Positions 1 to 62,100 of a stretch of 64,000 nucleotides of DNA are shown in pieces. The stretch's first letter is position 1; the number at the start of each line of letters is the position of its first letter. Source of the DNA: Tetmemena sp. SeJ-2015 (Eukaryota > Ciliophora > Spirotrichea > Sporadotrichida > Oxytrichidae); contig JAJKFJ010022447.1 in the NCBI GenBank assembly GCA_027382625.1, positions 102,298 to 166,297 of the forward strand. The letters are read 5' to 3'. The notes below the pieces were generated by a model, which ran no database searches, was not told the origin of the DNA, and worked only from the letters and a program-made list of their open reading frames with translations. The position numbers and the translations under genes are program-made.

Positions 1-43
1 TAGGATTCTCAGCGTCATATTGTGACATAGACCCGCCATTCTT

Positions 44-589
44 TCACTTACAAATTATCTTAATCTAAATAATATGTTTGTAAGTGATTGCCTCCGAAGG
101 GCACATAGCCTTGTTGCATTCTTCCGTATTGCAAAAATATGTTTATTCATACCTAATTTAATCATTTCTACCTTATTCTACGCAATGCTAATCATCAAAG
201 TCTTTCTTAAATTATCTGTAGGCCATAATAGAGACCACCATTGCGATTATCTCATAGGCTATGAGTAGATAGTAGAGCACAAGCATAAAAGTATTATCGT
301 AGAATAGTATCTGCGCGGTTTGGATACTCGATAGATTTAGAGTTAAGTCTAGTCCGACTGAGATCAGTACGAAGAAGATCTGGCAGAAATGCATTGTCGC
401 CCAAGTGATGTACAGTATCCAAAGGGGGAAGAGCTGCATGATCGCTGCAAAAGCACCGCTTATCATCAGCTTTGCAAAAATGGCAAAGTACTAGCCATAC
501 ATCAGATACCTCAGGCGACGGCGGTGGACTAGATTCTTAGGGCTTGGATGAATCAAGGGCTAGGCTGGGTCGGGAAAACAAAAATCCAT
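44..589 (-). CDS. Small multi-pass membrane protein, unknown function
   Basis: Read with TAA/TAG as Gln, an uninterrupted frame of 181 codons runs from an ATG at 589 to a TGA at 44-46. A short Pro-rich N-terminus is followed by RRRLRYLMYGQYFAIF and about four hydrophobic stretches (roughly residues 30-50, 52-72, 75-90 and 105-125). The tail is polar and holds several Cys. It resembles small uncharacterised membrane proteins common in ciliates, but no function can be assigned. A GTAAGT near the 3' end could be an intron donor, so the true C-terminus might lie beyond the window. The opposite-strand frame at 74-268 is a shadow. Confidence 0.6.
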
Positions 590-762
590 ATTTTTACTCA
601 GTCGTTTATTTATTAAAATTATAAGCAAATTGTTTTCAAACATTCTTACTTAGTTAGCAACTGTAATGAATTTAATCTCTTATTCAAATAAGCATTAAGA
701 TCAAAGAAAAATAGGCTTATTCTTTGATTATCAATATTAAGATCAGGTAGAGACATTAATGA
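590..762. other. AT-rich spacer
   Basis: About 170 bp of AT-rich sequence between the TGA of the channel gene and the start of the next minus-strand gene. No coding frame or recognisable site was seen. Confidence 0.5.
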
Positions 763-3700
763 TCAGGCCTCTGGAGCAACCAACTTAGCCTTGAGCTCTT
801 CGAGCATGGTGAAGACCTTTTGGTTCTCTTCCTTGACCTGAGTGATGGTCTTTTGGAGCTGCTGCTTGTAGTCTTCTTCAGCAGAGGAGATGCTCTTGAT
901 GATCTCAGATTCGACGCTAGAAGTGTGGTTGTTAACCTTGGCAATCATCTGCTCCAACTTGTAGTCGATGGCGTCACCCTTCTCCTTTAGCTCAGCAGCC
1001 ACATCGGAGGCGATGAGTAGATACTTAGTCTCGTCAGTAAAGGCCTACTTCATGTCATCAGGGATAAGGTAGGTGTTTTCAGCTATGATGTCTGCCTTCT
1101 CCTGGTAAGAAGCTTGAGCAGAGACAGAGTTAATCTTGGCGAAGGACTCTGAAATGATGGCGATCAACAGATTGAGCATGATGATCATGTTGAAGACTGT
1201 ACAGAGGATGAACAAAACCCACATGTAGGGGACTGCAACTTCTCCGAACTTGCCAGTATCGAAATCTCCCAAGATCATTCTGTAGCAGAAGGTGAAGAGG
1301 CCGACATAGGATTTGATGAACTGAAGGTCGTTGCCTTCCTCATCCTTAGTGTCTGGGTTGGAGGTAGAGATGCTTCTCATGGCATCTCCGAAGGCGACGA
1401 CTGTCAAGAGGACAATCAAGAGGAAGTGGCGCATGTCAATCATGACCTCAATGATGATTCTGATAAGGTAGCCAGTGGATTAGAAGATACGGAAGAAGAA
1501 GAGGAACTTGATCCACAGCATCAGACTCATGGTTGCTTGGAAAGATGCCTCTAAGCTCTGGTTGCTCATGCGCTTGATAATTGAGGTGGTTCCATCTGCG
1601 TTAGTGATAGTCTCCTCTCTCAGGTCGAACTCTCCGTTCATCTCAAGGATGACGAACACGAAGAGTAGGATAGGAGGCAAGAAATCGAGGTAGTTCCAGA
1701 AGGAGGTGAAATAGCTGAAGCCAGATTTGAAAAGCTGTCTCATCTCCATGTAGATGAAGTAGGCGGCAAAGATGAGAAGTGGTACCATGATCACGTAGTT
1801 CATGACCATCCACACATCGCTGGTTTGACGAAGCACATAGACTTCGTTCATATAGATCATGTAGAAGGCAAGGTAAGCCACGAAAGGATAGAACAGCTTT
1901 GTAAGGGTATACTGCTTAACAAGGGGCCATTTGTACTCAATCAGTTTCTTAATAGGCTTGAGAGTGAACAACTCCATCTGCTGAGTGTTTGCTAAAGCAG
2001 CCATGAACTCATGAGAAGCCTCATCTGTGAAAGTGTGAATCTTTGGAATATCAACGAACTCAAGTAGCAAAAAGATGTTGAAAAATTAAAACAGAGCTAT
2101 GTTTAGCAGTTCAGATTCAATTGGAGCAGGTTGAAGGATTCCATCAATATCTTCTTGATTATACCAGTAAGAGGAAACGCTAACTCCTGGGTTTTCCTTG
2201 ACCTTGATCATACCTTTCTTGATCTTGGTGACCTGGTCTGTTTGTAGTAGGCGAGAGTTGATATAATCTCCAATAGAGGGGAGTTCTCTCTCAATGAGCA
2301 TGGGTAGAGTGTGATGAATTGCTCTCATACATTTTCTTATAGAGAAATGTGAGAATTTTATGGATGCTCTTGAGTGGTGGTCATAGTCATAGCCAGCTAG
2401 GTATCCAAGCATCATATCAAGTCCCTTGTAGTCTTGCTTATCCTTGAGGATATCCATGGGAGACTTGCCTTCGAAGTTTACCAAGAAGGGCACTTCGTAC
2501 TTTATCTCAGTTCTGTCCTCTGCGTTAGGCTGGCAGATTTCCATAATGGCCTCGATCAACTCAGAGTTGTCGGCCAACTCGTGCAAGAAGGTATTACCAC
2601 CGGGAAGGATGTTTCAAAATATAAATTAAGAAGAATGGAATAATTAGCTCTATTTAACTTCCCATTATCAATGATTGATAGTTCTGATATGAAAATTGAT
2701 TCAAATAATCTCAGTCATTAAGAATAGATAGGTAATGCTCTAAGTCAGATTAAGATAAGACTACTCTCGAAGAGATTGATCACTGAGCAGGCAGCTTCTC
2801 TGAAATCTCTTTGATGACCTCCATCATCTTTTGGTTTTCGTCCTTCACACTCTGGAGCACCTTGTCCAAGTCTGATTTGGATAGCTCTCTGAACTCCTTT
2901 ATCTTTTCGTTAAGAGCATTTTGGATTGTGATAGCATGGTTGGTGATTCTGGAGGAGATCATGTCTAGCTTGTAGTCAAGGTCGTCTCCCTTCTCCTTCA
3001 TCTCCTGCTCCACGTCTGTTGCGATGAGTAGGTAGATGTTAGGCTCGCAGAACCGCTTTCTCCTTCTCTCGGGGATGAGATAGTCGTTCTCAGCAATCAT
3101 ACCAGCCTTCTCCTGATAAGAGGCTTGCACTGAAACTTCGTTGATGCGGGCGAAGGACTCTGAGATGATGGCGACCAAGAGGTTAAGCATGATAATCATA
3201 TTGAAGACTGTGCAAAGCACGAATAGGATCCACACATAGGGTACTGCGACTAGACCGAAGTTATAGGTGTCGAAATCTCCCAATACCATTCTGTAGGTGT
3301 AGGTGATGGAGTCGATGTAGGAGCCCACGAATTGGGAGGAGTTGCCACTCTCGTCAGGGACTTCCTCATTGGAGGTGGAGATGCTGCGCATAGCGTCTCC
3401 GAAGGCAACCATGGTGAGGAACATAATAAGGAGGAAGTGACGCATGTCTACGCACACCTCAATAATAATCCTGATCAAATAACCAGTACTCTTGAAGATA
3501 CGCAGGAAGTAGAGGAACTTGAGCCACAGGATTAGACTCATGGTGGCTTGTAGGGAGGCCTCAAGAGTAGGAGCACCTCTGTTGTCAAACACTCCAATTG
3601 CAGCTAGAGGGATGAAGACAATAAGCAAGAAGGGTGGGATCAAGTCCAAGTAGTTCCAAACTGAAGTGAGGTAGCTAAGTCCTTCGTGTCTAAGCTTTAA

Positions 3701-6700
3701 AATGAAGTTAAGTTGGCAATTTTATCGCTGCTGAACCTCGTTGTTGACGAAATAGAGTGAGAAGGCAAGTAGAGGAACCATGAATCCGTAGTTGATCCAC
3801 ATCCAGTCATCGTTAAGCTCTCTCTTATAGAAGATGTAGTTCATGTACACTAGGTAGGAAGAGAGGAATCCAACGAAAGGAATGAATAGTTTCTTGATAG
3901 TGAATTCTCTAGTTAAGGGCCACTTGTACTCTATAATTCTTCTGACTGCTTTACAGTCGAATACCTACATGTCTTGGGTTTAAGCAAGTGCTTCGAAGAA
4001 TTCAACTGCTAGGGGTTCGTAGGTATGAATACTGGGGATGTCCACAAATTCTAGTCTGATTAAAAAGAGAAATACACACTCACACACATACGCATACTGT
4101 AATGATTTCAGACTCTATGGGTGCTGGCATGAACATCTTGTCTTAGTCCTTGGGAGTGAGCCAGAATGGAGCGACAGATATACCTGTGGAGTTTGTCTAT
4201 CTGATGCAACCCTTCTTAATCTTCTAAGTAGCCTCAGTCTGGCAGAGTCTTGAGTCAAGGTAAGACACCAATTGAGGAAGCTCGCGCTCTACCAACAAAG
4301 GAAGCACTGCTTACATTCAACTCTTATTATGAATTAAGAATTGGGTTTTGGAGATTTAAGAAAAATTTAATTATGATTGCTCTTGAGTGGTGGTCTTAAA
4401 AATATTAAATCTTGTCCTCCTATCTCGCCCTCATAAAATAAAAGATTTGGGAGGAGGAAGGATGTTGTAGATGAGTCTTTGAACTTGCTCAGAATCAATT
4501 TAAGATGCTTCAATCTCACCGGCTTCAAGCTGCTCGATAAGGTTCCAGTGGAGGAAGGTGAAACTGAGATCAGCTACATGTCTTAACTTGGTGTAGTGAA
4601 CGTTGTAGTCTACGGTGTTGAGCACTTGGTAGAGTGCATGAGGGTCTCTCTTCTTGTCGAGGAGATAGGCAGACTTGAACTGCTGGTACTTTCTCTACAT
4701 AAAAAAGTATTTAAAGCTAATCTCTTGAGTCTCTCGAAAGTGTCGAAGGTGTGTTTCTCTGGGTTTTCATAGTCATAGGGGTCGCAAGGAGGAGGGTCAA
4801 TGTAGTAGTGGTTGTTGTTGCAGAGGTCCTTGTCGAAGAGTGGGATGCGGTTGAACTCGATCTCCTTGAAGTTGTTCTTCAGGTCGACCAGTCTCTCGAT
4901 ACCCTCGTGGTTGATGATCTTGACGGTGTCGTTGTTAACCCACAAGAACTGGTGAGACACGTGCACGAAGTCGTCCTCCTTATTGGGGCTGGACATAAGC
5001 CACTCGGGAATGATGTGTCTGATCTCCTGGGTGAATGAGTCACGGATCAAGAAAGTCCTGTTCTTTCTATCGACATCCAAGTACATGGAGAAATCGTGGG
5101 AGAAGATGTAGGGGAACTGGCACTGAGAGATCAGATCAGTAGGGAAGTTGCTGAATCTGTGCACCTACTACCAAGTCACATGGTTGCCCTGGCCTTGCAC
5201 CTTCTTGTAGAGGAAATAACGTTGGTTGACTAAATGCTCATACATGTATTCAGTGTCTTGGGAGAAGAAGATATTCTGCACTTATCGTTGTTCATAGAAT
5301 GGATGCACGAAAGATAAGTGCTCCTTTACTTCGCGCTCATTGATGATCTCAATAAGTTTCCAGTGGTAGAAGTTCTTCTCGGCTTTCTTGACGTAGGAGA
5401 CCTGACTCTTGATATTGCTCTTGGTCATGAGGGGGTCGAAGAAGGTGTTCTCATCATACTCTGCGATAGACTACTTGCTCTTGATGAGGATCTTGTTCTA
5501 CCACTCTCGTAGGTAGGTGAAATTTTCATCGTGGCACATGTAGACCTCGTAGTTGGAGTAGTCTTGTCCAGTTTTGTTGGCTGAGAGGTTCCACTCCATG
5601 CGAATCTTACCGGTCATGACTCCCCAGGTGCGGAGGTGGTTGTTCTTGTCGAGGGTCACAAACTTATCGTCAATGACTCTGGCAGCTAAGTAGTTGGGTC
5701 TGTTCTCCATACCGATGAATGATATGGTGTTTCTGTGGAGAACAGGCACGACCTCGATGGCATCGTAGGAGGAGAGGAAGACCAGTCTCTAGTTGGAGTG
5801 AGAGAAGTCAATAAGGCCTTGGCAACCGACCTGCATAGAACTGAGCAAGTAAGATAGGTCCTGATCCTTCTCAATAACGTTCTCAATATCGTAGAGGCGG
5901 AAACCGGAAGATCTTGTCTTGATCATGGTTGGGTTAGACTTGTGGCACAAAGTGTAGAGGTAGTTGTTGTCGGAGAAGTAAAGACCCACACAGTTAAATT
6001 CAAAATGATCATTATCTTTGTTGATCTAATTTATTGAGTTTTGTTCTTCGTAGGTCTTGGTCTCGTTGGTCTTGATGTCAATCTTATAGAAGTTGCTGTT
6101 GTCCACCAAGAACATGTATCAATTAATTCAAATGACTTCATCTTCATCATAATAGTCGATTATAATTTTGCTATCTCTCGTCCTTGAACCTGACTCCGGA
6201 ATGGATCATGCCGCCCATGTCGGGCACATTCATAAGCTCATAGAGTTTGTTGACGACGGGCTTTTCTTCGCCCATTACCAGCTCGAACAAGTAGATATTG
6301 TCAGTGATCTGGCAAAGGAACTCAGTCTTATCGCTGGGAGAGAACATGAACACGAAGTTTGTCTCACTGTTGAGGAAGGGGTAGTCCTCGTCTGTGAAGG
6401 TGTAGAGCTGCCTCTTGTGGAGGATGTTCAAAAAGAAGTTGTAGCCTGACTCCTTGTCTGGGTTCTCCTCCCTAGTCAGCACGAAAGACCATTGGTTCTC
6501 ATCTCTGTCGGTGTCTAAAGTTACTAACTCTCCTTTACAAGCGTGCTCTAGCTCTTGGTCCACAGAGTACTCCTCAGACTCTGGGTCCTCGTTTCCTCTA
6601 GTGTTAATGAACTTAATCCTTCCATCATAATATAAGAACTATTGATCTCAACTTAATATCAGTAAGCAACACTACGACTTCGAATTGCTCATTCTCATCG

Positions 6701-8318
6701 AGTAGTCTGTAGATCTGCTCAACCTAGGCGTCAAACTCGTAGTGGCGAATCCACTTCTGCTTAAGCACACTGAAGAAGGAGACCACATGACCGTGGGCGA
6801 CGAGCATGAAGGTCTTGATGAACACGAAGCTGTTGAAGAGCTTGCAGTGGTTCTTTATCTTCTAGTAGAAGATGTTGGGGAAGATCAAACCCTTTCTCTG
6901 CTCACCTTCGTCTAAGCACATTCTGGTGGTCAGTTCCGTCTTAATAGAGCGGATATCAGCCTTTCCTATCTGTAAGAAGAGCTCATCGAAGGTAGTCTCG
7001 ATTGCGTAGATTGTATCAGGAGGGTTATCAACTGACGAGATTCTAGCACAGTTGTAAATAGAGATAAGAGAACTCGAAATTATGATACTAGGGCTTAGAG
7101 TTTAATAGATATCGAGCTTGCTGGATTCACGGAGAGCAAGAGCACCTAGATCTCCCCACTTGTTAACTGAGTAGGAAAACTTGGTGACTGGGTCGAATCT
7201 GTCGTTTCTGGGAACCACTTCTCTGTACTGAGTGAATTCGTAGTCGAAGTCCTCTCCAACTGCCTTAAAACAAACCACACTAGGTAATCAATCAGCATGC
7301 ATTCTTTAAGCTCCTTGTTGTTGATGACAAGCATGTTGAAGTCAATCTGGTTGTCGAGAGTCTCCATAGCTACGATAAGGTTAGTAACATCACTGTCGTT
7401 TGTGAAGCTGATGAGCTAGTGGATCTTCATGTCCTCGGGGGAGATGGTGGCCACCTCGCTCTCGGGATCCACGGTGATTCTGTTCTCAGAGCCGTCCTCG
7501 TAGTCATCAATCAAGTTAATGAGCTTGATATTCTTGGGAGAGGCAATGAGGACTACGCTATCGTGATACTGCATGAACTTGTACTCAGGGTCTTGGATGA
7601 AGTCCTCAATGAGGACGGTGGCGTTCTTCTTTGAGAGGTTAACGAGGTGGAAGCAGTCGTGGTTCTCGTCTGGGTTCTCAGTCTTGAACATGAAGTACTC
7701 GTTGTTGATGCTCCACTTGGTAATCTCACCTACCACCAATTAAGTAATTTGAAAAGTGAGATAGAGAATGTAAGAGTAACTCCTTATAGGTGTTTGAATC
7801 TGATCGCAGTTGGGGAACATGATCAGCATTATTGGAATTAAAATCCAGTGATTAAAATGGGGCACAGAGGATATGTGACTTACTTCTGAGAGGCTTCTCG
7901 TAGACCTTCTTGTTGTCGGTCTTGCTCCACACTTGGAGGAGGAACTTGGCACCTCCGTGGTACTTCTGGATCTCTGAGGAGATGGAGACAAGGATTGGGC
8001 AGTACTCCATGTTCTCTGCGTTCAGGCATGTGGACTTGATGATGTACAGCTCTACTTAAATATTAATCTATTCATACTTTAATATTCGCTTTTGTTTTTA
8101 CAAAGATATGATAAGCACGGCTGATCAGGTATTCTGAGTGGGTTCTTACGTCTCAAGTTAATACAATTATAATATGGTTAACTTTGTAGGTGATTTCTTC
8201 TAGGAAGCTGTAGGAGGTACGCTTGTCGGTGAGGAAGGGTTGAGTGTAGGGTTTGGCATTGGCCGATGCAGGTGCTATACAAGTTAATTCCCAGGATATA
8301 TATCTTACGTCTACTCAT
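763..8318 (-). CDS. Giant ion-channel protein, copy A (germline form, contains IESs)
   Basis: The gene starts at ATG 8318 (MSRR, then an intron) and ends at TGA 763-765. The N-terminal half (8318 to about 4470) holds many short beta-rich blocks that look like degenerate propeller repeats. An ankyrin-like linker follows (LPGGNTFLHELADN, about 2600-2385). Then comes a six-segment ion-transport domain (about 2070-1080) with the pore-side motif FGDAMRSIS, the segment MILGDFDTGKFG and a last helix with MIIMLNLLIAIISESFAKI. A coiled-coil tail ends in KLVAPEA. The same order is found at 32401-38960, which serves as reference. The frame is continuous only if the 1.85 kb interval between 11 bp repeats at 2603-2613 and 4456-4466 is removed, together with the short IESs at 2326-2370 and 2070-2108. 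Selectivity and gating cannot be read from the sequence. Exact exon borders in the N-terminal half are not resolved. Confidence 0.7.
2070..2108. other. IES, 39 bp, pointer TAGCA (copy A)
   Basis: TAGCA is repeated at 2065-2069 and 2104-2108. Removal drops a hydrophobic insert and joins PAPIESELL to LEFVDIPKIH. Copy B carries a 46 bp IES at the homologous place and copy C has none. Confidence 0.6.
2326..2370. other. IES, 45 bp, pointer TGCTCT (copy A)
   Basis: TGCTCT is repeated at 2320-2325 and 2365-2370. Removal changes the encoded DHHSRA..LPMLIERELP to exactly the length of copy C (DHHSRALTELMPFIVEKQLP). Copy B has an IES at the same place. Confidence 0.7.
2780..4395 (-). CDS. Channel body copy B, nested in the IES of copy A, no N-terminal half
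   Basis: This minus-strand channel body runs from a DHHSRA block (4378-4395) to a TGA at 2780-2782. It contains ERELPQLVSYLDSRL, the membrane domain (WPLTREFTIKKLFIPFVGFL, MRHFLLIMFLTMVAFGDAM, ILFVLCTVFNMIIMLNLL) and a coiled-coil tail ending EKLPAQ. It is a clear paralogue of copies A and C. As it stands it is frameshifted and interrupted. Removing pointer-flanked pieces at 4312-4381 (AGCA), 4062-4107 (AATCA) and 3697-3729 (AGC) gives one open frame that aligns with A and C. It lacks the propeller-like half and the ankyrin-like linker. Either those come from shared segments of copy A, or this is a truncated duplicate. The restored frame argues against simple decay. Confidence 0.65.
3697..3729. 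other. IES, 33 bp, pointer GCT (copy B)
   Basis: GCT flanks the piece (3694-3696 and 3727-3729). Removal gives NNEVQQLRHEGLSYL, equal in length to QNEIFQMRTDGLSYL of copy C. No GT..AG pair fits this alignment. Confidence 0.65.
4062..4107. other. IES, 46 bp, pointer TGATT (copy B)
   Basis: TGATT is repeated at 4057-4061 and 4103-4107. The piece contains an in-frame TGA and is not a multiple of three. Removal brings PAPIESEI into the frame of RLEFVDIPSIH. Confidence 0.75.
4312..4381. other. IES, 70 bp, pointer TGCT (copy B)
   Basis: TGCT is repeated at 4308-4311 and 4378-4381. Removal joins DHHSRA to VLPLLVERELPQL in frame. It lies at the same coding position as the 45 bp IES of copy A. Confidence 0.65.
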
Positions 8319-49244: not shown

Positions 49245-51943
49245 TCACTAATAAATGTGATTACTAGAATTATGAGCAAGTAGTTATTTATTTAATTCTG
49301 ATTTTCTAGTTTTGCTATGAGCCTAGGGTTTTTAAGGATGTTTCTAAATCGCCAATAATCCGCTTATTTGATTTATACCTATTGCCGATTTTCTTCTGTC
49401 ATTTACATCCACCCCTCCGTAGGAATTACGAGGTCTCTTCGATGCAGAACTACTTGAGGGCACCGATAGATTTGGAGATTTAGAACAATAAAAATGATTT
49501 AGCGTACGAGTGGTTTGCATAGGAGTTGTGATAGGGTGAGTGTTTCTCCTCCTCATCATAGTGATTATTGTTATGATGCCCTCCAGATTCTTTATTAAGA
49601 TTTACTGATAACATCATATTGGCTAGGATTTATTAATCTTTTCGCTTTTCCTCCTCCTCTTTCAGCCTTTCCTCTTCTCTTTTAAAGGCCTATTAAGCCA
49701 ATTCTACTTTCAAAGTAATGGCAGAGTCACTCAGGAGGATCCAGCGATGAGTTTTGAGTGCATATAGATCGTATCTTTTGGCTGGATCTTTGTGCAACAG
49801 CCCTTTTACTATATCAGCAAATTCCTCTGTTGAGGGACAATCCTTTGGAATTTTAACTGCCTGAGTTATAATCCTCTCCTTCACTTGTGCTGGTGTGTCT
49901 CCATTGAAAGGGAATTTGTAGTACCTCATGCAGTATAGCATTATTCCGAGCGCCCATAGATCAATAGCTGGATTCGCTTTATTGTCAGAGCCTTGAAGCA
50001 CTTCTGGGGACATGTACCTTATAGTGCCAGCATCAGTGCGATCAGCTTAGTTTCCTTTACACCTGCCTGATATACCAAAGTCCACTATTTTTATCCTACT
50101 TTTTGCCTTATAAAAGAAATAATAAATACGCTTCGAATCAAAGAGGACATTTTCAAGTTTCAAGTCTCTGTGGATGATGCCTTGTGAATGACATGCTTCT
50201 ATTGCTGAGAGCATCTATTTAAAGAGGTGCCTGACCTCAACCTCATCAAGGCCTTATTTTTATTCCACGTATTCTATTAATTCTCCTCCATCGGCATACT
50301 CCATTATCAGTAGAAGCTGATTTTTAATTACAAATGAGTGGTACAGCTTTATTATTCTCTCATTAAAATTTATCTGAAATTTAATGTGAAGTTCTAAAAT
50401 GGGGATATGTTTTTATGGTTCAACATTTTCAAAGTCTTAGCCTCTCTATCTATGTACTAAATTTCTCCAGCATTTTTCTCTATAAGGATTTAGGTGAGCA
50501 AAATATTTGGGAGGAGAAAAGACTTACAGGGGGGGGGACGGAAGTGCACCTCCCCCCATTTTTATGGTCAAAATAGCCCAAAAATCGTCCATTTAGGCCG
50601 AAATCGGCCAAAAATGCCAAAAAATTAAGAGTTTGACCTTCGAAATTTCCTTGAGGGTAAAATTTCATGATTTTAATTTTTTTCAAAAATTCTTTCAAAA
50701 TATGTTCTAGTCAAATTTACCATTAAAATAATAGTTTTAAAATAATATAGGGCAAATTTAGTCAGATTCTTGATCAGTACCAGCAAGATTTACAATATTC
50801 GCCACAGATAGAGGCTATAAGTTAAATCAGCCATCAGTATTTATAAATATTGCAGTTATTTAATGTCATTCCAACATAGAGAAATATTTCCTCGAATTTA
50901 TTTACATAAGAAGAATATGGCAAGTTAAGTTCAAAGTCAAGATAATTTCATCTATTACAGAATTTGGTATTTTACTCTGACTTTAACAAAGATAAAGTCT
51001 CGTTAAATCTATTTTATAAAGATGGCATGCTTTATTTACGATTTTGATAATAGCATTTAAGCTATTTGGAAATCAATTGCAAAGCTACTCCCACTTTTTT
51101 TATCATCATTTTTTGGGCTCACTATTTTGAGGACAAATATATAGGAGTTCAAATGTGACTCAGTCATTAAAAGGAGATGGGGTCCCAAAAAAAAAGAAAG
51201 TATTCATCAAAATAAGACTTAATAACAAAAAATAGAACATTTTTGAAAAAAATTAAAATCATGAAATTTGACCTTCAAGGAAATTTCGAAGGTCAAATCT
51301 CTATTTTTTGCATTTTGGCTTTTGCCAAATGACGATTTTGGGCATTTTGACCAATAAAGGGGGGGAGGCACTTCGTCCCCCAAGACTTACACATATCAGC
51401 GAGGTCTATATACTTTAACGCCACCAACTAACCAGTTTCTTTATGTCTTCCCTTGTAAACACTTCCAAATCCTCCCTGACCTAGCAGCTCTTCTTTCTCA
51501 TACTAGTCAACGATTTAAGATGAATCGAATTCTCTGCCCTTGTAGTCGTAGTACAAAGTTTCCTCATCTTTATTCAAAGCAAGATAAATAAAAACTTTTA
51601 CTATCTCTCAAGTAAATAACGTCATCGTCCAGTAACTGAATTCCTTGCTGAGTAGAAATAATTTTTATAGAGTATAGATGATTGAAGAGGGGCCTCTCTT
51701 AAACCTAAGTTGAGTTCTAATAAGCTCAAGTAGCTGCTCTGAATTTTCCAATTCCTCTCCATATAGCTTTAGTGTCTTCTCTGTGGAGTCGCCATTCACA
51801 CGGATGTGAAGCTAAATTTGCACATTAAGTATGACCATAATGATTATGAGTGAAAAAGAAAACATTTTAAAAGAAAGTCTTCTTTAATAGGATCGACTGA
51901 TGATGTTGTATTTACCTACCTGTTTAACCTTACTTGTTTCCAT
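49245..51943 (-). CDS. Serine/threonine protein kinase (CAMK/ULK-like)
   Basis: ATG 51943 starts METSKVKQ, an intron follows, then [20 protein letters not shown], a ubiquitin-like N-terminal fold by appearance. The kinase domain shows [15 protein letters not shown] (Gly loop), [11 protein letters not shown] (ATP Lys), [15 protein letters not shown] (helix C Glu), [15 protein letters not shown] (catalytic loop), DFG, then [20 protein letters not shown] and [12 protein letters not shown], ending [13 protein letters not shown]. All catalytic residues are present. The C-tail is Glu/Lys-rich then Ser-rich ([20 protein letters not shown]), ending at TGA 49245-49247. GT..AG introns interrupt it. The intron between [11 protein letters not shown] and the helix C exon holds an 853 bp insertion (50529-51381). 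Confidence 0.75.
50519..51391. mobile_element. Non-autonomous TIR element in a kinase intron, 10 bp target duplication
   Basis: The element (50529-51381) has long imperfect terminal inverted repeats: left about 50529-50702, right about 51235-51381, both starting with a G-run and containing TTCGAAATTTCC / GGAAATTTCGAA. AAGACTTACA flanks it on both sides (50519-50528 and 51382-51391). Removing it and one flank leaves a normal GT..AG intron of about 48 bp. The target repeat covers the 5' splice site itself. There is no coding capacity between the arms. Long TIRs and a 9-10 bp duplication recall Mutator-like MITEs; a pointer-flanked IES is the alternative. Confidence 0.7.
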
Positions 51944-52278: not shown

Positions 52279-55200
52279 TCATTCTGTCTTTTGGGATTAA
52301 GTGGAAACTTGGCCTGGAGGCTTGAAAGTGAGAGCGGGGCCTCCCTCGATCACTCTTGCGAAGGTCTGCTGCCACTCGTTCATATCTATGATGCCATCCT
52401 TTCTAATATCGATGGTATCAAATAGGTCCTTGATAACTGGGTATGCTAGTTGTCTCTCTCCGCACAACTCATACAACTTCTAAACCAACTTACTGAATTG
52501 CTAGTAGGTCAGCTCAAATAAATAATTAGAGATTACTTATAACAATTATTTTAAGCTTTCCAAGTTTGCTCTCATCGAACTAAAGGTTATGATGTGAAAT
52601 ATCTTACATATTTGAAAGCATCGTCTGTAGAATTCATATGGAGGATCATGAGTTCCTTGATCCTTGCCATCTTATCTCTCGCTCTCTCCTGGAGTCTAAC
52701 GTCTAAGTCTCTAGTCTTGAACTTGGCCATGAATTCGTTGTAATCGATCTTTCCATCTTGGTTAGGTGTCTATTCTCAACATCAACTTTGTCTATCTCTC
52801 TTGAAGTCAGGCCGATGTTCAACTTGCGGATGGCTTGACGGAATTCAATTCCTGAAATGGAGCCGTTGCCATCTGAGTCAAACTCTCGGAAGATTTGGTC
52901 TAATGAAGCTGCGCTGGTCTTAATAATCTTTGTAAGCTTCTCTAAGATGTCAGTATCCCAAGTAAAATTATAAATCAGTTGAAGAAGATGAGCTCTGAGA
53001 AACAATTGTCGTTCTTGCGCCTGGAGGAGCAGTCTTCACATTAGCAAAATAATTAATATTCATATTAACTTTAAAACTTAAATATATTCATTTAGTTTTG
53101 AGTGATATTCCTGACAGTTGAGTTTCCAGTATACTTCATGTTGTCGAAGACTGCTCTGAATTAATAGATATCTAGGGAACTCAGTTATCCATTCTCAGTG
53201 ATTTGCCTCCAAACTTTTCTGATATCCTGAGTCTTGAATCTTCCTGCAGTCAATGAACTCACTGCTCTTTCGAAATCAGTATAGTTTAAAGCTTTCTAAG
53301 CAGCATCTTTCTTAAATGTGAGGAAGAAGTCAAAGGCAGAATTGCAGTCCTTGAATTGACACTGAATAGAGTTTTTCAGCTCTATCATCATCTAATCATC
53401 ATTATTGAAAGGAGAAAACACAAATAATCGTAGTTACATTAAGCACATGATATTTAAGCTTTCTTGTGAGGATCTAACTCAGCAAACAGCTTTTAGATAA
53501 GAGCGACTGTGAGGTTGAAGCCAGCTAGAGCTTGGTTCTCCTCAATGAACTTTTTAAACTGCTCGAAAGTAACTTTGTGGAATTTCTCACTAGCTGCATC
53601 ATAAGAGTCTCTCACAGAGCCAAACTTCTTAGAAATTATCAAACCCATTTGTTAGATAGCGGAGACTTTCCAGTCAAAGGTGCTAGCTTGAGCGAATGAA
53701 CCGCCGAAAGACTTTCTAAAGTTAGTGCTTGAAGCCATACCTCTGCTACCACTTGAGGAGTAAGGGTTTTCGTTTTGCAAGATACGATGAAAATCAGACA
53801 GCTGAATCTTGCCAGTCTTGTAGAAATCAATAAGCTTGAACAGTCTGTCTACTTTAGTGGCTAGTATTTCCTCTTCCTTTATTTTCAAAATGTTGACGAG
53901 TGCCCATCTCAGATCATTCTTGTTAATCTATCCCATAAATAAGGCTTAATTTCAATTAGACTGTATAGTGATACTTTAATTTAAAATAGTGAATGAAGCC
54001 ATCGAAATCTTTGTCGAAGCATTTGAAGGCTTTATTTATTATACTGTCTTGCCTGATCCAAGCTTGTATCTTGGCAATAACATCATTTTCCCAGTCGAAG
54101 TTATCATCATTCTTCTTTTGTAACTTGTAGGCAGAAGAAAGATTTATGACTTCTAAAAAGCTTGGGTAGTCTACTAGGCCGATTTCATTTTTATCCATCA
54201 AAGCGAACAGTTTCTCTTTTACTGGAACAGACAGAGTAATTATCTTATCGATACCTGTACAAAACTTGGCCAATGAAAGCAACCCATCTCCGGTCAGATC
54301 GAACCTGTTAAAAGCCTCTCTGTAAGATATTTTCTTGTCGATCAAAGCTTCACGGATTTATTTAGCTCACATTATCTTTCTTCCGAAAGAGTTTCCTTGC
54401 TAAGGAATTTATATCAGAGAATTAGAAATGTGAGAATTTTAAATAAGCAATAAAATCATTTAGAGTCATTATTTAACAGGCAATTAATATATCTTTTCTT
54501 GTCGATCTTAGACTTCATGAATTAAAATACTCTAATAGAAACTGCGACAGCGCCTTCAAGCAAGTCTCTCTCATCACACTTTGCCATTAGTCTTCTCAGG
54601 ATGGACGAAATAGTTTTAGAAGTATTCTAATTATAATTTATCCAAATAATAAGCAAGTTTAGTTAAATATTAATTTATGAATATATTGATAAGATTATTA
54701 ACTCTTCTTTAAGATAGAATCTTCATCTACTGTGTGCAGAAGTTTCTTTAGTACAAATTTAAGACCTTGAGGCTCAACTCTCCCATCATTTTAAGGATCA
54801 GCATCTTCTAGCAGTTACAGGAATCTTTCCTCCTAATAAATAAATATATCCTTGTGAGGATGTATCTCACTATATATCTCTCTGAAAATCTTATTCCTAT
54901 AGTCAACAGTCTCGTGCTCTTAGCCACATAAGTTCCTTAGTAGGGTAGGGATCTCAACTTTTCCATCCTTATTTTTCAATGTTTTTGCAAGATGTCTCAA
55001 TTATGGCTCGCTTATAGTTGGATAATTGGGCACTTATTTTTTCTATATTTTATATAAGATTTCTTTAAATTATTTACCCCATTTATGGATCCATCCTTCT
55101 GACAGCCTCACATAGCTTTGGGAAGTCAATTGGTTCATCCCAAATAAAATTAAGAAAATTCTAAGATGCATTTTGAACAAGAGATCGTCAGATGTGATTC

Positions 55201-56255
55201 TGTTATTTTGTACTACCTCTCTAAGCATTTGTAAGGGGTTTTAAGAGTCTTCATAAATTCTAGAGCTCCACTCTTCTACGTCCAATTACCCATCTCTGTT
55301 TGCATCTAGCAGTTTGAATAAACCGTCTATTTCTGGAGCAGTCATACCCCTAAGTTCATCAACAGAGTTAAGTGCTCTGTGGAAATCAACTCTGGACAGT
55401 CTCTTTTGAATTATCTTGTCTGCCTTTCTCAGGAAGAGTTCGAAGGCTGTCTCAGAAGAAAAACCAGTCTTGAACATCCACTCTCTGATTTTTCTAATGC
55501 ACTTAGTTTCCCAGTCGTTTCCAGCAGGCACCGCCCATTTGAAAGCTGCTTCGAACTACTGATAACTAATCTTCTGTTAATTAATGCTAGAACACAGCCA
55601 TAAAATAAATCCGTTATTTCACTTAGATCGATTTGGTTGCTGGAATACTCAGATACCACTTTTATGAATCCTCCCAAAAGATACAATTACTCTCCTTATT
55701 CAGATTTATCTATACTTTTGCTTCTCTGAAAGTCTTTTGCTTTCTGCTTTGTGCTTAAGGTTCAGAATGGAAATCTTTGGGACTAGTTAACTAGTATTCA
55801 TAGCCATTTTGATCTTCTTTCTTGCTAGTTCCATAAATAAACAATTAAGTAGCTTGAAACAGCTGTACCAAAGAGCAAGACTTCCCATTGAATTAGAATC
55901 CTAATTCTTTGAGAAGAGCTTTGATGTGTCCTATTTCTAAGTACATTCCAACTCGTTTCAATCATAAACCTCTAATATAACAAGGTAAAATAAATAACGA
56001 CTTTCTTATTGCTGCTCAATTAGCGTCAGTAATTGCTTGCCTGTTTCTGTATAAGTCGTTGGCAATGAGCATAAGTTTCATTCTTCCAATATCAGGCACG
56101 TTTGACACTCTCGAAGCTGATGTGAGTCTTGTCACTGCACTCATTGGTCTCTTCATATAATTTTGTTGCTCGCTCTTTCTGTCGAAGAGAATTTTATTGC
56201 TTTCTGACGATAATATTATTTAAGCCCAAGCCTGTTTTTTCATAAACAATTCCAT
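52279..56255 (-). CDS. Scrambled EF-hand protein gene, minus-strand segments
   Basis: Minus-strand segments run from ATG 56255 (MELFMKKQAWAQIILSSESN) to TGA 52279-52281. Recognisable parts: DWETKCIRKIREWMFKTGFS, TAPEIDGLFKLLDANRDG (EF-hand), LKFVLKKLLHTVDEDSI (end at 54713), ISYREAFNRFDLTGDGLLSL (EF-hand, from 54366), FKCFDKDFDGFI, DFYKTGKIQLSDFHRIL, FREFDSDGNGSISGIEFRQA and FDTIDIRKDGIIDMNEW. Between LHTVDEDSI and the segment that encodes ISYREAFNRFD the expected middle part is absent here. It lies on the plus strand at 56393-56985, apart from one piece at 54525-54616. About 1,000 residues with many EF-hands, so a calcium-binding role is likely. Several other AT-rich breaks are IESs or introns. 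The gene can only be read after segment reordering. Confidence 0.7.
54525..54616 (-). other. Single minus-strand MDS that fits into the inverted block
   Basis: This 92 bp piece encodes TISSILRRLMAKCDERDLLE and GAVAVSIRVF. Its ends carry AAACTATTTC (54607-54616, also at 56615-56624) and AGAGTATTT (54525-54533, also at 56656-56664). Placed between 56624 and 56656 it gives NKQTISSILRR and SIRVFAEFM in one frame, replacing an AT-rich spacer with a TGA. Confidence 0.75.
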
Positions 56256-56392
56256 CTTAAAACATCCTTAATTTTCAGCTTCACCTGTGATCCTCATGGC
56301 TAACTTAAATAAATTAAAACAAATAGGACGAGTATCTTAGATAGTGAAAATTATTGATGTATGAATATATGCTGCTGCACATTTTAGAATAA

Positions 56393-56985
56393 ATTCTATC
56401 GACAGATTCATTAGATTCCTTGATAAGGATAAATCTGGCAAGATCAGATACATGGAATTTAAATTATAACACATTAATTTGACTAAATAAATTAATCTTA
56501 TTAAATATAATTTAGATAAATTTCTGCAAAGGATGGGTGAGGTTTCAAACAGAGACCATAATCCTTTCAAGTCAGTTTTGCAAAGAGTGGCTTACTTCAT
56601 AGAGTCAAATAAGCAAACTATTTCTTATCATGGAAAAGTTAATAAATGAAAAGGGAGAGTATTTGCTGAGTTCATGAAAAAATGTAAAGAAAAGATCTTT
56701 CGGTGAGCTTCAACAGTATGCCAGCTACTTGGATGTGGACAAAGATGGCTTTATTTCTGAAATAGATCTCCAGACTTGCCTCAATATTTATCCATAATTT
56801 AAATTAAGTAATTTGAAGCAAGTGTCTTTATTTAAGAATAACTTGAACTCGAATGCTTTCTTCAAGAATTTATTTTATAATGGAGGTGAAGCCCTTGCAT
56901 AATCAGCATTTTCATCACAAAAGAAGTTCTTCCCTACTAGCAAGAAACAATCAACAAGAAAGAGCTAGAGAAGTCGCTAAATAAA
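56393..56985 (+). other. Inverted segments (MDSs) of the scrambled EF-hand gene
   Basis: The plus strand encodes SIDRFIRFLDKDKSGKIRYM, NRDHNPFKSVLQRVAYFIES, NKQTIS (to 56624), then from 56656 RVFAEFM, FGELQQYASYLDVDKDGFIS, EIDLQTCLNIYPQ and ending with AREVAKQ at 56985. In this EF-hand family these segments belong between the minus-strand pieces ending at 54713 and starting at 54366. Pointers on both ends match exactly: ATTCTATC (56393-56400 with 54713-54720 reversed) and GCTAAATAAA (56976-56985 with 54357-54366 reversed). Small internal IESs remain, for example 13 bp with pointer AAAA near 56678 and possibly 7 bp near 56950. Confidence 0.75.
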
Positions 56986-57137
56986 CTTCCTTATATTCAG
57001 ATAATTAAAATTAAAGGGTAACAAGAATCTAATTCTTATCAATAAATGGTTATTTCTTAAAATCAAATTAATTGCATATTTTATTTTTAAACTTATATAA
57101 TTAGTAGTTATAAAACATTACCTTAACCTTTATCTTT

Positions 57138-57250
57138 TAAAATGAAGAGTTATTCTTTAAGACAAAATACTCATTTTATTACCGCTTCATTAATAATCAG
57201 AGAGACAGTATTACAATCGAGGAAGCCTTCATATATAAATCTATCCAGCG
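57138..57250 (+). other. Plus-strand coding-like fragment with EF-hand flavour
   Basis: A short frame reads NEELFFKTKYSFYYRF then INNQRDSITIEEAFIYKSIQ, which resembles an EF-hand helix-loop-helix. It lies between the inverted EF-hand block and the next gene and has no start or stop of its own. It could be another displaced segment of the EF-hand gene or of an unrelated gene. Confidence 0.35.
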
Positions 57251-57333
57251 TTTTCAAATAATTTAAAAATATTAGCTTAAAATATCTTAAAATCATTCTA
57301 AAGAAAAATAATTCATAGCAATTATAAAATAAA

Positions 57334-59015
57334 TCACAAGAAAGGCTATTTAAGTGAATAAGATTGGATGAATGCCTTTTCTCCTTTCAATTAAGAATAA
57401 AAATTCTTAATAAAATTTCTTTAAAATAAAAATGATATATTTTGCTGATAAATAATCGAGTCTTGATTCTTAGATACATGCTAGATGCACATTCCATAAT
57501 CCTCCCAAGTCTACATTTTGTCCGAGCCTGGCTTCTTGATATATTTGGTAAAGAGTTTTCCCTGTTGAATAAAAGAGATCCTTAATATTCTGAATTTAAT
57601 CTTCTACTTTTTCTTCTCTTTATTAAAACAATAATGATTACTCGTTTCAATAAGCTTTGCAGCTCTGAACTACTCATTACATCTCTTAATTGTCCTTTGC
57701 TTCTCAGATGAGCGTCAATAGAAAATACTTGACTAGCCTTAAAATAAAAGCAGTTATCTCTTGACTAGAGGACCTGTCTATTGCTCATTCTAAGATTGCT
57801 TTCAGTGAGTCCTCCCTTAGTGTTTGAGTTGTAAGCCCATATAATTAGTAGATTTTTCAAATCTTCCTCTCTAACAGACCCATATCTATTCATCTTGCGG
57901 AAGGGATTGCTAGCACTGGAAACTCTCAAATGACCTTGACTTTCGCTTTGAACCAGGCCTAATTCTGGAACACTAATATCCAAGTTATATATATTCTTTT
58001 AAGATTTTAAAGTTATTTCTGAGCCAGTTTTCAGCATCTTATATCCTCATGGCTCCACCAAGACCAAGGATTGGGTTGTTTTTATTCTTATGGTGGTCAT
58101 GGACTTTCAAGTTTAACTGATTAACGCTTGATGCAAACAGCTTGTTCACAAAATAGTTCTTAGCTGTTGAACCTTTAGTCTCCTCTTGTAAATCATCAAC
58201 AAATGCAATAGCTGCGATGCCTCCTTTGACTAAGAAACTACCTACAAGTGGAATTTCCATAGCAACCTGCTCTCCTTTCCTGACTTTGTCAGACAAAAAT
58301 CTGAACACTTATTCACATCCATTTTTGCAGACATCTTTGCTCAAACTGCAGAGGAGTCCAACCTCAGTGTAATTTATCTTCACTTTAGGAATAATGCCAT
58401 TTGAACCCTTAATGTCATAAGGTCTGATTTAAGCCCCTCTCGAGTGAGCTACTCCAGATCTCAAAGCCACTGCACTCACAAAATCTTTCCCAACTATAAA
58501 TACTGCCTCTCTCAGTTACTTGTCTCTTATTAAAATAAAGAGTAAATGAAAAGAATTATATAACCACGATCAAGAGTATTTTAAATAAAAATTAAGTCTC
58601 TTTCTCCTGGATTAGTTGTTCCCTAAAGAAATATGAAAAATATGCTTCGAATTTGGAATTTATAAGTCTCATTTAAATCCTTACTGCAAGGTCTACAATC
58701 GTTGCTGAGAAAGTGAAATTTCCAAATCTAGGAACAGATACTCCTTTGCCATTTCTCAATTATCTTGAGATATAAGTTCCGAATGCTTTCCATATAATGC
58801 TAACGGTTTTCTCATCAAGAGTTGTCTATCCTAGTTACCCTTGAGTTTGAAATAGTCTATTAAATATTCATGAAATAGTATATTACTTCGCATGAGGCTG
58901 CTAGCCTGATCTCAAACTCTCTGAGGCAGTTCTAGGTCGCTACTGAGACGATATCCTCTAAGTGCCTGGCTGTTATAGATGCATCTAGTACTATTCTAAG
59001 CTCTTCATATTAAGT
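57334..59015 (-). CDS. CCDC81-like protein with HU-type domains
   Basis: The frame begins near 59015 with EELRIVLDASITARHLEDIV, lacking a clear ATG, and ends at TGA 57334-57336. Order of conserved blocks: LREFEIRLAASCEVIYYFM, LDEKTVSIIWKAFGTYISRQ, GKGVSVPRFGNFTFSATIVD, REAVFIVGKDFVSAVALRSG, RPYDIKGSNGIIPKVKINYT, LCSLSKDVCKNGCEQVFRFL, EQVAMEIPLVGSFLVKGGIA, TAKNYFVNKLFASSVNQLNL, and near the end KMQTWEDYGMCIQH. This matches the eukaryotic CCDC81 family, which carries two bacterial-HU-like domains and is associated with centrosome/cilium functions in other eukaryotes. A GT..AG intron splits VDLA from GTTNPGERD, and a 74 bp IES (58529-58602) splits GERD from KQLREAVFIV. The first exon or MDS is missing or unresolved. 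Confidence 0.7.
58529..58602. other. IES, 74 bp, pointer GTCTCTT (CCDC81-like gene)
   Basis: GTCTCTT is repeated at 58522-58528 and 58596-58602. Removal corrects the frame and gives NPGERDKQLREAVFIVGKDF. The 7 bp pointer is one of the longer simple ones in the window. Confidence 0.75.
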
Positions 59016-59168
59016 TTCAAATTTATTTTATTTTTCTAATTAACTTTATCAATCTTATCATGATATATATATTTATTTTTATCTAATCAGGAATTTGAAG
59101 ATAGATAAGAGGAAAGAGTTGATTTAATTGCTATTAAATAAATAAACCTATTTTATTGGAACATTATC

Positions 59169-62100
59169 ATGGATAGGACAGCCGACGATAGCTTATATAT
59201 TCAAGAGGATGGGAATGCTAGACTCATCAACAAGTCATATTCTAATAACATGAGTCAAAGTAAAATTTCCATTCAAATATTTTGAGTAGGTAATCATACC
59301 AGTATTTTAGACGATGTTGCGTCTCCGAACACCATGAGAAACGCAAATGCAGACATCAACATTAAGCCAGGAGCTATAGCTTTTTCACCTAATGGGCAAA
59401 GAAGACCTTTCTTCAACAGAGCGTTTGGAAAGCTCGAAAAGGGTTCTTTAAGAGGAAGTATCTTCTCTCTTTGTGCCTCGGCTATAGGATCAGGAGTGCT
59501 TTCACTACCCTATGTGCTGGCTTTAAATGGCTGGGCACTTGGTTTTATATTTATTCTCGTTTCTGCCTTTGGTAAGTTAATTAAATTTCATTATTGTGAG
59601 AGGAATCTGATGGAGTGTTTTATCAAATTTTCAAATTTTTAATAACTATTTTTAGCTGCTGGTTGGAGTTTATTCATGATTGCTGAGTCCGCAATTAAGG
59701 CAAAGGTCAACAATTTCTCAAAGCTTACTTTTCATGTTGGAGGCAGAAAACTAGAGTTATTCCTACAGATCAATATTCTTATCTACATAGTTGGTTCTTG
59801 CATAGGCTACCAGATCATCAGTAAGAATTTTATATGGCTTAACGATGAAAAGTTACCACGCTGGCCAGAAATGTAATTACCTAGATCGCGGGACCTAATA
59901 ATGTGGATGCTGACTTTATGGATAGTTGGAAGTTCAGATCAGCTGTTGGTTGCCCAATTGCATTAATTATCCTGTTCCCTATGAGCTTGATCAAGGACAT
60001 GAGTGGATTTAGATATATTAGTTTTGCATCTATCTTCGCTCTCTTCTACACAGGTGTTGTGCTCATAATCGAGATGCCAGAGTATATTGATTTCTACTAC
60101 TCTAAATCAGATGTGAGACCTTTTATATTTGACTGGAACTTCTTTATGGGTGCTTGCATTACATTTTTTGCATACACTTGCCAGGTCCAGCTTCTTCCAA
60201 TTTATTCAGAGCTAGTAAACCCTCAAGAGAGAAGAATCAAGAAAATTGTTTGGGTTTCAGTGGTTGTGGATGTATCATTTTACATGATTATTGCGGCAGC
60301 AGGATATTTCTCCACTTTTGGGACACTGAGTTTCCTAGAAGTAGCACCTCTTTAATGAATAAATAGAAAAAAATATGTTTATAGGATAATTTTTGCTCCT
60401 AAGTCTGTTTCTTTCAGTTATAGAGGTGTATTTGAACATCTAAGGCTTCAAATTTCAATCCTAATTTTGTCTTTTAGAGGTCAGCTGCACCGAAATAAAA
60501 TTTATATTTTAAGCTATTTTCTCGCTATTGTAAAATAAAATTAAAGTTAAATTTTTAAATAGTGCAACATTTATATATAACCAAAGTTAAATTCATGATT
60601 AAGGGACTAAGGCTACAATTTTCCAGCTTAAATTCTTTGGACTTATGGCTGAAGTATATGCATATCATGAATTCAAAAAATGTTGCACTATTTAAAAATT
60701 TAACTTTAATTTTATTTTACAATAGCGAGAAAATAGCTTAAAATATAAATTTTATTTCGGTGCAGCTGACCTCTAAAAGACAAAATTAGGATTGAAATTT
60801 GAAGCCTTAGATGTTCAAATACACCTCTATAACTGAAAGAAACAGACTTAGGAGCAAAAATTATCCTATAAACATATTTTTTTCTCATCTTTATTCATTA
60901 AAAAAATTTACTGTCGAGGAAAGGCCCCCTCTTTCTCCACTTTTGGATACACAGCTAGAGTTGTCCTAGATAGAGCACCTCTTATAGAATAAAATTTATG
61001 CTATTTCAATTTACTCATTCATTTTAATTATAGTTGTAGAGTTCTTAAACTTAAGTTATTTTATATGGAATAAAAAAAGCTGAGATAATTAATTGTATAT
61101 TCAGCCTATTTTGATTTTTAAGAGCAAAAATAAGACTAGTTTAAAATATTTGGCAATGGATCTTATTTTTAAAGAAAAGGACTAGAACAGAGCTTAAAAA
61201 AATTATACAGCATTTAGCGAAACGTTAAAGAAATCTTGAAATTAAGGATTCATTACTAGGTAAATCACTTCATTTAACTATTTAAAATAAAGAAAATGAT
61301 TTAACTATAATGGAAATAGAGACTATGCAATTATGATCGCCTAAATTTTGATAATTAAATACAAAATATAAAAATAAATTTTCAAAATCTATGTAAAGTT
61401 AATGATTAAATTAATTTCAAAAATGAAGTATATCTTTAAATATTTTGCTATCAAAAATTAGAAAATTATCATAAATACAAATCTTCAAAATTTTTAAATA
61501 AATAATTCAATTCTACACTTCTATTATAAGTGAAATATTTTTTTTGGTGTTTAAATGTGTGTTCTGTTCGTGGCTGTTCCGGTTAACTACAATCCATTTA
61601 GAAATTAGGTATTTTACATGAAGAGTAGAAACAATGACTTTTCACTTAAACAGTAAGAATACATAAATTTTTGGGAGACTGCTTCGTACTCTCTATATCA
61701 AAAGAATTTTTAAATATTAAAAATTTAAGAAAATTATTATCTTTATAACTCTTAAAAATATTATTTTTATATTAATTTTAATGAACTTAGTCTTAATTTA
61801 TATTTAAAGATTTATTAAAAAAAAATAATGTTTAGTAAATGAGTTTAATAACTAAAATAATAGATTTAGCTGCATCAATTAAAATACATGCAAAATATTT
61901 GCTTACATTGCCCTTGCTTAATGTTAATTGGCTTTTATAGAAATTTGTTAGTGACAGGAATATTCATAGCATTTACTTGCTTTATCGCCATTATCTATCC
62001 TAAAATATCATCAGTCCTTGGTATTCTGGGAGGATTAAACGCAACTGCTATTCAATTTTTAGTTCCAAGTAATTAGTAACTATGATTTAACATGTTTATA

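What the first reader, a model, noticed from the sequence alone, without database searches (positions are those of the whole stretch)
52279..56985. Scrambled EF-hand gene with inverted segments in zig-zag order
Coding segments of one protein lie on both strands. Reading order: minus strand to 54713, plus 56393-56624, minus 54616-54525, plus 56656-56985, then minus from 54366. Each of the four joins uses an exact shared repeat of 8-10 bp (ATTCTATC, AAACTATTTC, AGAGTATTT, GCTAAATAAA), and each gives continuous frame through a conserved EF-hand order (TVDEDSIDRFIRFLDKD, NKQTISSILRR, SIRVFAEFM, REVAKQIREALIDKK). The exact sequence matches and restored frame are seen directly. That this is programmed DNA unscrambling, with odd and even segments on opposite strands, follows from what is known of hypotrich ciliates.
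Basis: partly seen in the sequence, partly recalled or inferred. Interest (0 to 1): 0.95.

Follow-up and report, generated by a model that had tools for sequence, protein, structure and literature searches.

The report
Scrambled EF-hand gene in ciliate germline
In germline-type DNA that likely comes from the ciliate Tetmemena, pieces of one EF-hand protein gene alternate between the two strands and share exact short repeats at six joins, so the cell would be expected to cut, flip and rejoin them to build its working copy; this is a striking but already well-known kind of genome rearrangement.

Summary
The core observation is right. All four repeats are exact, and a relative (P0001) plus single-strand paralogs in the same assembly show that the proposed order is the protein's order.

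Corrections: (1) A third inverted segment was missed (+57334-57391; 11- and 15-bp repeats), giving six scrambled joins and seven segments. (2) Join 3 is probably not AGAGTATTT, which runs into a stop 13 codons on, but AAGAAAAGAT about 30 bp further, which keeps the frame. (3) Join 4 is one base out of frame with the segment before it; unresolved.

The layout, 6' 4' 2' 1 3 5 7 (primes = inverted), is the canonical odd-even "return" pattern of hypotrich scrambled genes. The genome carries telomere-bearing transposons whose 85-bp ends match Tetmemena sp. exactly, and its DNA polymerase alpha gene is also scrambled by inversion (16-bp repeat).

Unscrambling itself is inferred: two stretches of the locus find no second copy in the assembly. 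Genome-wide rearrangement maps of Tetmemena were published in 2022, so this is a new, perhaps already mapped, member of a known kind.

The parts
57424..58820 (-). 5' coding segments of the same gene (start approximate): HU-like N-terminus, HU-CCDC81 domain 2, EF-hand-like stretch; contains interruptions assigned by eye (AACTT 58014-58010/57986-57982; GAG 57643-57641/57618-57616)
   Evidence: P0002/P0003 N-terminal matches, weak; Pfam PF18289 E=1.7e-14 on a typed prediction; repeats
54713..56313 (-). Segment 1 (MDS1 block, with non-scrambled IESs), ending in pointer 1 ATTCTATC (54720-54713)
   Evidence: P0001/P0002 matches, pointer; upstream edge TTTATTT is the longest in-frame direct repeat bridging 57430-57424 to 56313-56307, but longer out-of-frame ones exist: weak
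56393..56624 (+). Segment 2, inverted; pointers ATTCTATC (56393-56400) and AAACTATTTC (56615-56624); holds a non-scrambled IES with AATTT 56456-56460/56519-56523
54491..54616 (-). Segment 3; pointers AAACTATTTC (54616-54607) and, preferred, AAGAAAAGAT (54500-54491)
54525..54533 (-).
56687..56985 (+). Segment 4, inverted; pointers AAGAAAAGAT (56687-56696) and GCTAAATAAA (56976-56985); unresolved 1-base frame offset near 56955-56968
56625..56686 (+). IES between segments 2 and 4; 56656-56678 resembles the end of segment 3 (possible degenerate copy)
   Evidence: local alignment 23 vs null 14.7+-2.5, reached in 24 of 2000 shuffles, one of five pairs tested; not significant with the earlier boundaries (71 of 500)
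53459..54366 (-). Segment 5; pointers GCTAAATAAA (54366-54357) and TCACAAGAAAG (53469-53459); contains a non-scrambled IES near 53992-53928
57334..57391 (+).
   Evidence: P0001 572-598 match and 11-/15-bp repeats
52279..53418 (-). Segment 7 to the TGA stop; begins with pointer TTTTCTCCTTTCAAT (53418-53404); contains an IES with AGCT 52557-52554/52514-52511 and, read by eye, a 28-bp GT-AG intron 52607-52580
54617..54712 (-). IES between segments 1 and 3 (96 bp)
54367..54490 (-). IES between segments 3 and 5 (124 bp)
53419..53458 (-). IES between segments 5 and 7 (40 bp)
56986..57333 (+). IES between segments 4 and 6 (348 bp)
   Evidence: similarity to segment 5 not significant (455 of 2000)

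Best explanation
The locus is the germline-type form of one EF-hand gene, likely of Tetmemena, whose coding segments lie in the order 6'-4'-2'-1-3-5-7 (primes = opposite strand) with exact 8-15 bp repeats at all six scrambled joins, and it is predicted to be cut and rejoined at these repeats during development of the somatic nucleus. Segments 1, 3, 5 and 7 lie on the minus strand; 2, 4 and 6 lie together on the plus strand, inside a stretch of about 1.1 kb that would itself be removed between two minus-strand parts of the gene. Shown: the repeats, the order and orientation, the agreement with relatives, the transposon context. Inferred: that template-guided DNA unscrambling acts here, that one repeat copy is kept at each join, and that the layout arose by inverted duplication of part of the gene followed by alternating decay of the two copies.
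For: Exact repeats at 6 of 6 joins against a null median of 4 bp. P0001 runs through the six joins in the proposed order: scores 155/126/139/124/271/160 unscrambled against 70/92/58/47/145/81 for germline read-through (the join-5 construct also contains join 6, and join 3 was made at AAGAAAAGAT). In the same assembly, loci C3333, C2454 and C1497 hold paralogs on single strands in this order; the two main C2454 alignments span joins 1-4 and 5-6. With join 3 at AAGAAAAGAT, segments 1-2-3-4 give one open frame of 217 codons. No GT-AG at any cut position of the eight joins tested. Positive control: DNA polymerase alpha split between minus 12270-12255 and plus 16399-16414 of contig C4161 with a shared CTAACAGTATGTATGG; the joined frame reads KLTANSMYG|CLGFGSSRFHAQ. 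Context: 150 DDE_3 transposase matches among the 150 scored of 921 candidates, and five of five inspected transposon ends carry the published 85-bp Tetmemena TBE repeat exactly. The layout is a 'return word' of the M1M3M5M7/M6M4M2 kind (PMC5940158, section 7).
Against: No somatic or RNA copy was seen: 593-bp and 887-bp queries from the locus each match only the locus itself. Join 4 leaves a 1-base frame offset, and by eye about four more single-base offsets occur in the gene (near 57590, 52975, 52785, 52770), so assembly error or a decaying copy is possible. Only 1 of 5 IES/segment exchange pairs shows the residual similarity that the duplication model predicts, and it is marginal after correcting for five tests (24 of 2000). 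The best actin matches are unscrambled (positions 5-410 in one frame, contigs C2293 and C3715), although actin I is scrambled in Stylonychia and Oxytricha (PMC2394655, passages); the other actin matches were not examined.
Confidence: 0.95

Rival explanations
1. A decayed germline copy: the locus is scrambled remains of the gene, no longer assembled into a working somatic gene, while a paralog does the job.
For: About five single-base frame offsets by eye, including the one at join 4; paralogs exist at C3333, C2454 and C1497.
Against: 217 codons open through joins 1-3, open through joins 5-6, all six repeats exact. Two similar paralog contigs, C2454 and C1497 (91-97% identical), differ by 4 single-base indels in about 1.5 kb aligned, so such indels are found elsewhere in this assembly, as errors or as natural variation.
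Confidence: 0.12
2. Assembly artefact: inverted pieces wrongly placed, or a chimera of two genes.
For: Draft assembly with single-base indels; no second copy of the locus to compare.
Against: An artefact would not be expected to place an exact shared repeat at six of six breakpoints, nor to set three inverted pieces in even order.
Confidence: 0.02
3. Joining at the RNA level: opposite-strand transcripts trans-spliced.
For: The gene appears to have a normal short GT-AG intron (52607-52580, by eye; boundary words).
Against: No cut position within any tested repeat gives GT-AG or GC-AG.
Confidence: 0.01
4. Two separate EF-hand genes on opposite strands.
For: EF-hand repeats resemble each other, and cross-matches occur.
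Against: The plus-strand pieces fill the gaps of the minus-strand gene in P0001 (about residues 133-185, 224-294 and 572-586).
Confidence: 0.01

Closest known systems
Odd-even scrambled loci of Oxytricha trifallax ('return word' 123456654321; Braun et al. 2018, PMC5940158, section 7 and passages read)
   Same: Same layout: odd segments in order on one strand, even segments in reverse order on the other; pointers at each join.
   Different: Here the even cluster lies before segment 1, inside what looks like an IES of the same gene, so the word reads 654321123456; different gene and species.
Scrambled loci of Tetmemena sp. and the duplication-decay model (Feng et al. 2022, PMC9797194; abstract, section 3 part 1, sections 5, 6, 8, 19 and passages read)
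   Same: Apparently the same species; MDS/IES pairs flanked by identical pointers; paralogs alongside.
   Different: That study works genome-wide; its held main text has no hit for EF-hand, calcium or CCDC81. I could not open its MDS tables, where this locus may be listed.
Scrambled actin I and TEBP alpha (PMC2394655, passages read) and DNA polymerase alpha (named there)
   Same: Germline segments out of order; in actin I, two are inverted and must be turned round.
   Different: There the macronuclear structure is known; here it is predicted.

Membership tests
Hypotrich scrambled gene (odd-even, with inversion) | Coding segments permuted and/or inverted in the germline relative to the protein | tested here: met
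   P0001 and single-strand same-assembly paralogs
Hypotrich scrambled gene (odd-even, with inversion) | Exact short repeats (pointers) at the end of segment n and start of n+1 | tested here: met
   6 of 6 joins, 8-15 bp; null
Hypotrich scrambled gene (odd-even, with inversion) | Scrambled pointers longer than non-scrambled ones | tested here: inconclusive
   8-15 bp against 3-5 bp at the non-scrambled ones and 7 bp at the bridging join, but the short ones were chosen by eye for frame and homology, and the automatic list offered longer repeats at several
Hypotrich scrambled gene (odd-even, with inversion) | Somatic copy in the unscrambled order with one pointer copy kept | not testable with these tools
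   No second copy of two stretches of the locus in the assembly
Hypotrich scrambled gene (odd-even, with inversion) | Hypotrich germline: TAA/TAG = Gln, telomere-bearing transposons | tested here: met
Hypotrich scrambled gene (odd-even, with inversion) | Other classic genes scrambled in the same genome | tested here: inconclusive
   DNA polymerase alpha: scrambled. Actin: the two best matches are unscrambled
Duplication-decay origin (Gao/Feng model) | Residual similarity between each IES and the segment it is exchanged for | tested here: inconclusive
   1 of 5 pairs: 24 of 2000 shuffles reach it, marginal for five tests; the other four are not significant
RNA trans-splicing | GT-AG at the joins | tested here: not met

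The most novel reading that the evidence does not exclude
Join 3 catches scrambling in the act of moving. Two strand-opposed copies of the same roughly 40-bp stretch share three repeats in the same order (AGAGTATTT, TTCATGAA, AAGAAAAGAT), so the cell could join at any of them, and only the last gives an open frame. The junction is sliding along a half-decayed inverted duplication, and the developing nucleus may make, and sort out, alternative somatic versions of this gene.
Probability: 0.25. Interest if true: 0.5.

Novelty: new member of a known kind. Interest (0 to 1): 0.33.

Why it matters
It is a compact, readable example of a gene that cannot be read straight from its germline DNA. Single-strand paralogs in the same assembly (C3333, C2454, C1497) offer a before/after comparison for how scrambling starts, and join 3 keeps what may be a half-decayed duplicate that bears on the duplication-decay model. 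For a specialist it confirms rather than overturns what is known.

Tried and rejected
Tried and dropped: AGAGTATTT as join 3 (stop 13 codons on). A first alignment of IESs against partner segments, with join 3 at AGAGTATTT, gave one low count among seven tests (8 of 500, IES 4/6), but with stricter scoring and the internal IES removed it was not significant (455 of 2000), so I do not use it. The C-terminal ~100 residues of P0001 were not found convincingly in the window. The telomere word CCCCAAAACCCC is absent from the window. Two requests for 18S rRNA to name the species did not complete; the species call rests on the transposon ends. The other actin and DNA polymerase B matches (the latter include full-length unscrambled ones such as C1785) were not followed up.
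Full report
What was checked. The window is contig C3137 (102298-166297) of a 146-Mb, 5213-contig assembly. The gene reads with TAA/TAG as glutamine and TGA as stop.

Independent test of the order. A protein search with a rough, typed unscrambled product gave 10 relatives among the 7986 candidates scored, the best P0001 (1022 aa, JGI source, 44% identity over 72% of the query). P0001 maps to the locus piecewise and runs minus, plus, minus, plus, minus in the order claimed. It also showed something missed: residues 572-586 lie on the plus strand at 57335-57379. The corresponding joins share TCACAAGAAAG (11 bp) and TTTTCTCCTTTCAAT (15 bp). At each of six joins the unscrambled product aligns better to P0001 than the germline read-through (155/70, 126/92, 139/58, 124/47, 271/145, 160/81; best of three frames; the join-5 construct also contains join 6).

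Paralogs in the same assembly. C3333, C2454 and C1497 hold relatives of this gene on single strands in the predicted order. One C2454 alignment (with a stop inside) spans joins 1-4 and another spans joins 5-6. On C3333 one alignment spans joins 1-2 and ends at join 3, one spans join 5, and the next starts 46 bp later on the same strand just past join 6. C1497 spans join 4 and, in another alignment, joins 5-6. The order is therefore probably ancestral, and the window's locus the rearranged one.

Chance. Random opposite-strand pairs in the locus have a median of 4 bp (20,000 draws); treated as independent, the six together give log10 p about -17.7. The observed windows were centred on the repeats, so the figure is indicative.

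Corrections. Join 3 at AGAGTATTT gives SIRVFAEFMKKCKEKIFR and a stop. Joining about 30 bp later at AAGAAAAGAT gives SIRVFQFMKSKIDKKRSFGELQQYASYLDVDKDG, comparable to P0001 VFAEFLKQKVEKKRSIEDLARYAGLMDVDKDG, and an open frame of 217 codons through segments 1-4. The plus stretch between AGAGTATTT and AAGAAAAGAT may then be a degenerate duplicate of the end of segment 3: 24 of 2000 shuffles reach its score, the strongest of 25 IES-by-segment pairings, but marginal after correcting for the five matched pairs, and not seen with the earlier boundaries (71 of 500). Join 4 remains one base out of frame with segment 4. By eye, about four further single-base offsets occur near 57590, 52975, 52785 and 52770. 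The similar contigs C2454 and C1497 (91-97% identical) differ by 4 single-base indels in about 1.5 kb aligned, so such indels occur elsewhere in this assembly, as errors or as natural variation.

Whole gene. The gene extends upstream on the minus strand to about 58,820, with an HU-CCDC81 domain 2 (PF18289, E=1.7e-14) and EF-hands. The inverted cluster 56393-57391 lies between minus-strand parts that can be bridged in frame by a 7-bp direct repeat, TTTATTT (57430-57424 / 56313-56307). This repeat is weak and common (81 occurrences on the two strands of the window), and 8-9-bp repeats that break the frame also exist there. Other interruptions were assigned pointers of 3-5 bp, several by eye against longer automatic candidates, and one looks like a 28-bp intron, GTAAG...TTTAG, at 52607-52580.

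Organism and germline status. DDE_3 transposase: 150 matches, all of the 150 scored of 921 candidates. CAAAACCCCAAAACCCC occurs 432 times against 72 for its reversed control. Many of the places listed lie about 100 bp from a contig start. Five such ends, on four contigs, were read and each carries the 85-bp terminal repeat printed for Tetmemena sp. TBE elements exactly, while three repeats printed for Oxytricha and Sterkiella score 21-22. Three other contigs inspected start with the 20-base telomere CCCCAAAACCCCAAAACCCC, so the assembly likely holds some somatic chromosomes, but two stretches of this gene find no second copy. DNA polymerase alpha is scrambled by inversion on C4161 with a 16-bp pointer (the identification as alpha rests on the recalled motif KLTANSMYGCLGF). 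The two best actin matches are unscrambled.

Mechanism. Template-RNA-guided joining at pointers, as described for hypotrichs (Feng et al. 2022, introduction part 1), is the likely process; nothing here shows it directly. RNA-level joining is unlikely, because no cut position of the eight joins tested offers GT-AG.

Place in what is known. The pointer order along the minus strand is 654321123456, a return word of the canonical odd-even class (PMC5940158, section 7). Feng et al. annotated Tetmemena genome-wide, with 13.6% of its gene loci scrambled (PMC9797194 abstract), and their held main text has no hit for EF-hand, calcium or CCDC81. Six literature searches showed no paper on this gene in their listings, but none was aimed at it, and the MDS tables could not be opened. 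I therefore file it as a new, possibly already mapped, member of a known kind.

Noticed in passing
G000 contig C4161 12239-12884 (-) and 16380-16589 (+) (locus L060); also C1943 near 138675 and 142525-142951 (locus L061): DNA polymerase alpha gene scrambled with an inversion over about 4 kb; on C4161 a 16-bp shared repeat CTAACAGTATGTATGG joins the frame.
   Followed up: partly
L062 (C3333), L063 (C2454), L064 (C1497): Single-strand, collinear paralogs of the EF-hand gene; C2454 and C1497 are 91-97% alike with single-base indels.
   Followed up: partly
window 59160-60360 (+): Amino acid transporter-like gene (PF01490, E=1.6e-6 on one frame) next to the scrambled gene, with what looks like a short GT-AG intron near 59572.
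   Followed up: no
window 49402-50664 (-): Protein kinase gene (PF00069) downstream of the EF-hand gene; its coding may continue to about 51,800.
   Followed up: no
window 50533-50718 and 51381-51210: Imperfect inverted repeat (153 identities, 17 mismatches, 18 gap positions) with a G-rich outer end, between the kinase and its possible upstream part.
   Followed up: partly
window 1-8000: G+C 0.43-0.45 against 0.25-0.41 in the rest of the window; contains an ion-channel-like frame (PF00520, 766-2613 -).
   Followed up: no
G000 C298, C586, C739, first 20 bases: Contigs starting with the 20-base hypotrich telomere: likely somatic chromosomes mixed into a germline-type assembly.
   Followed up: partly
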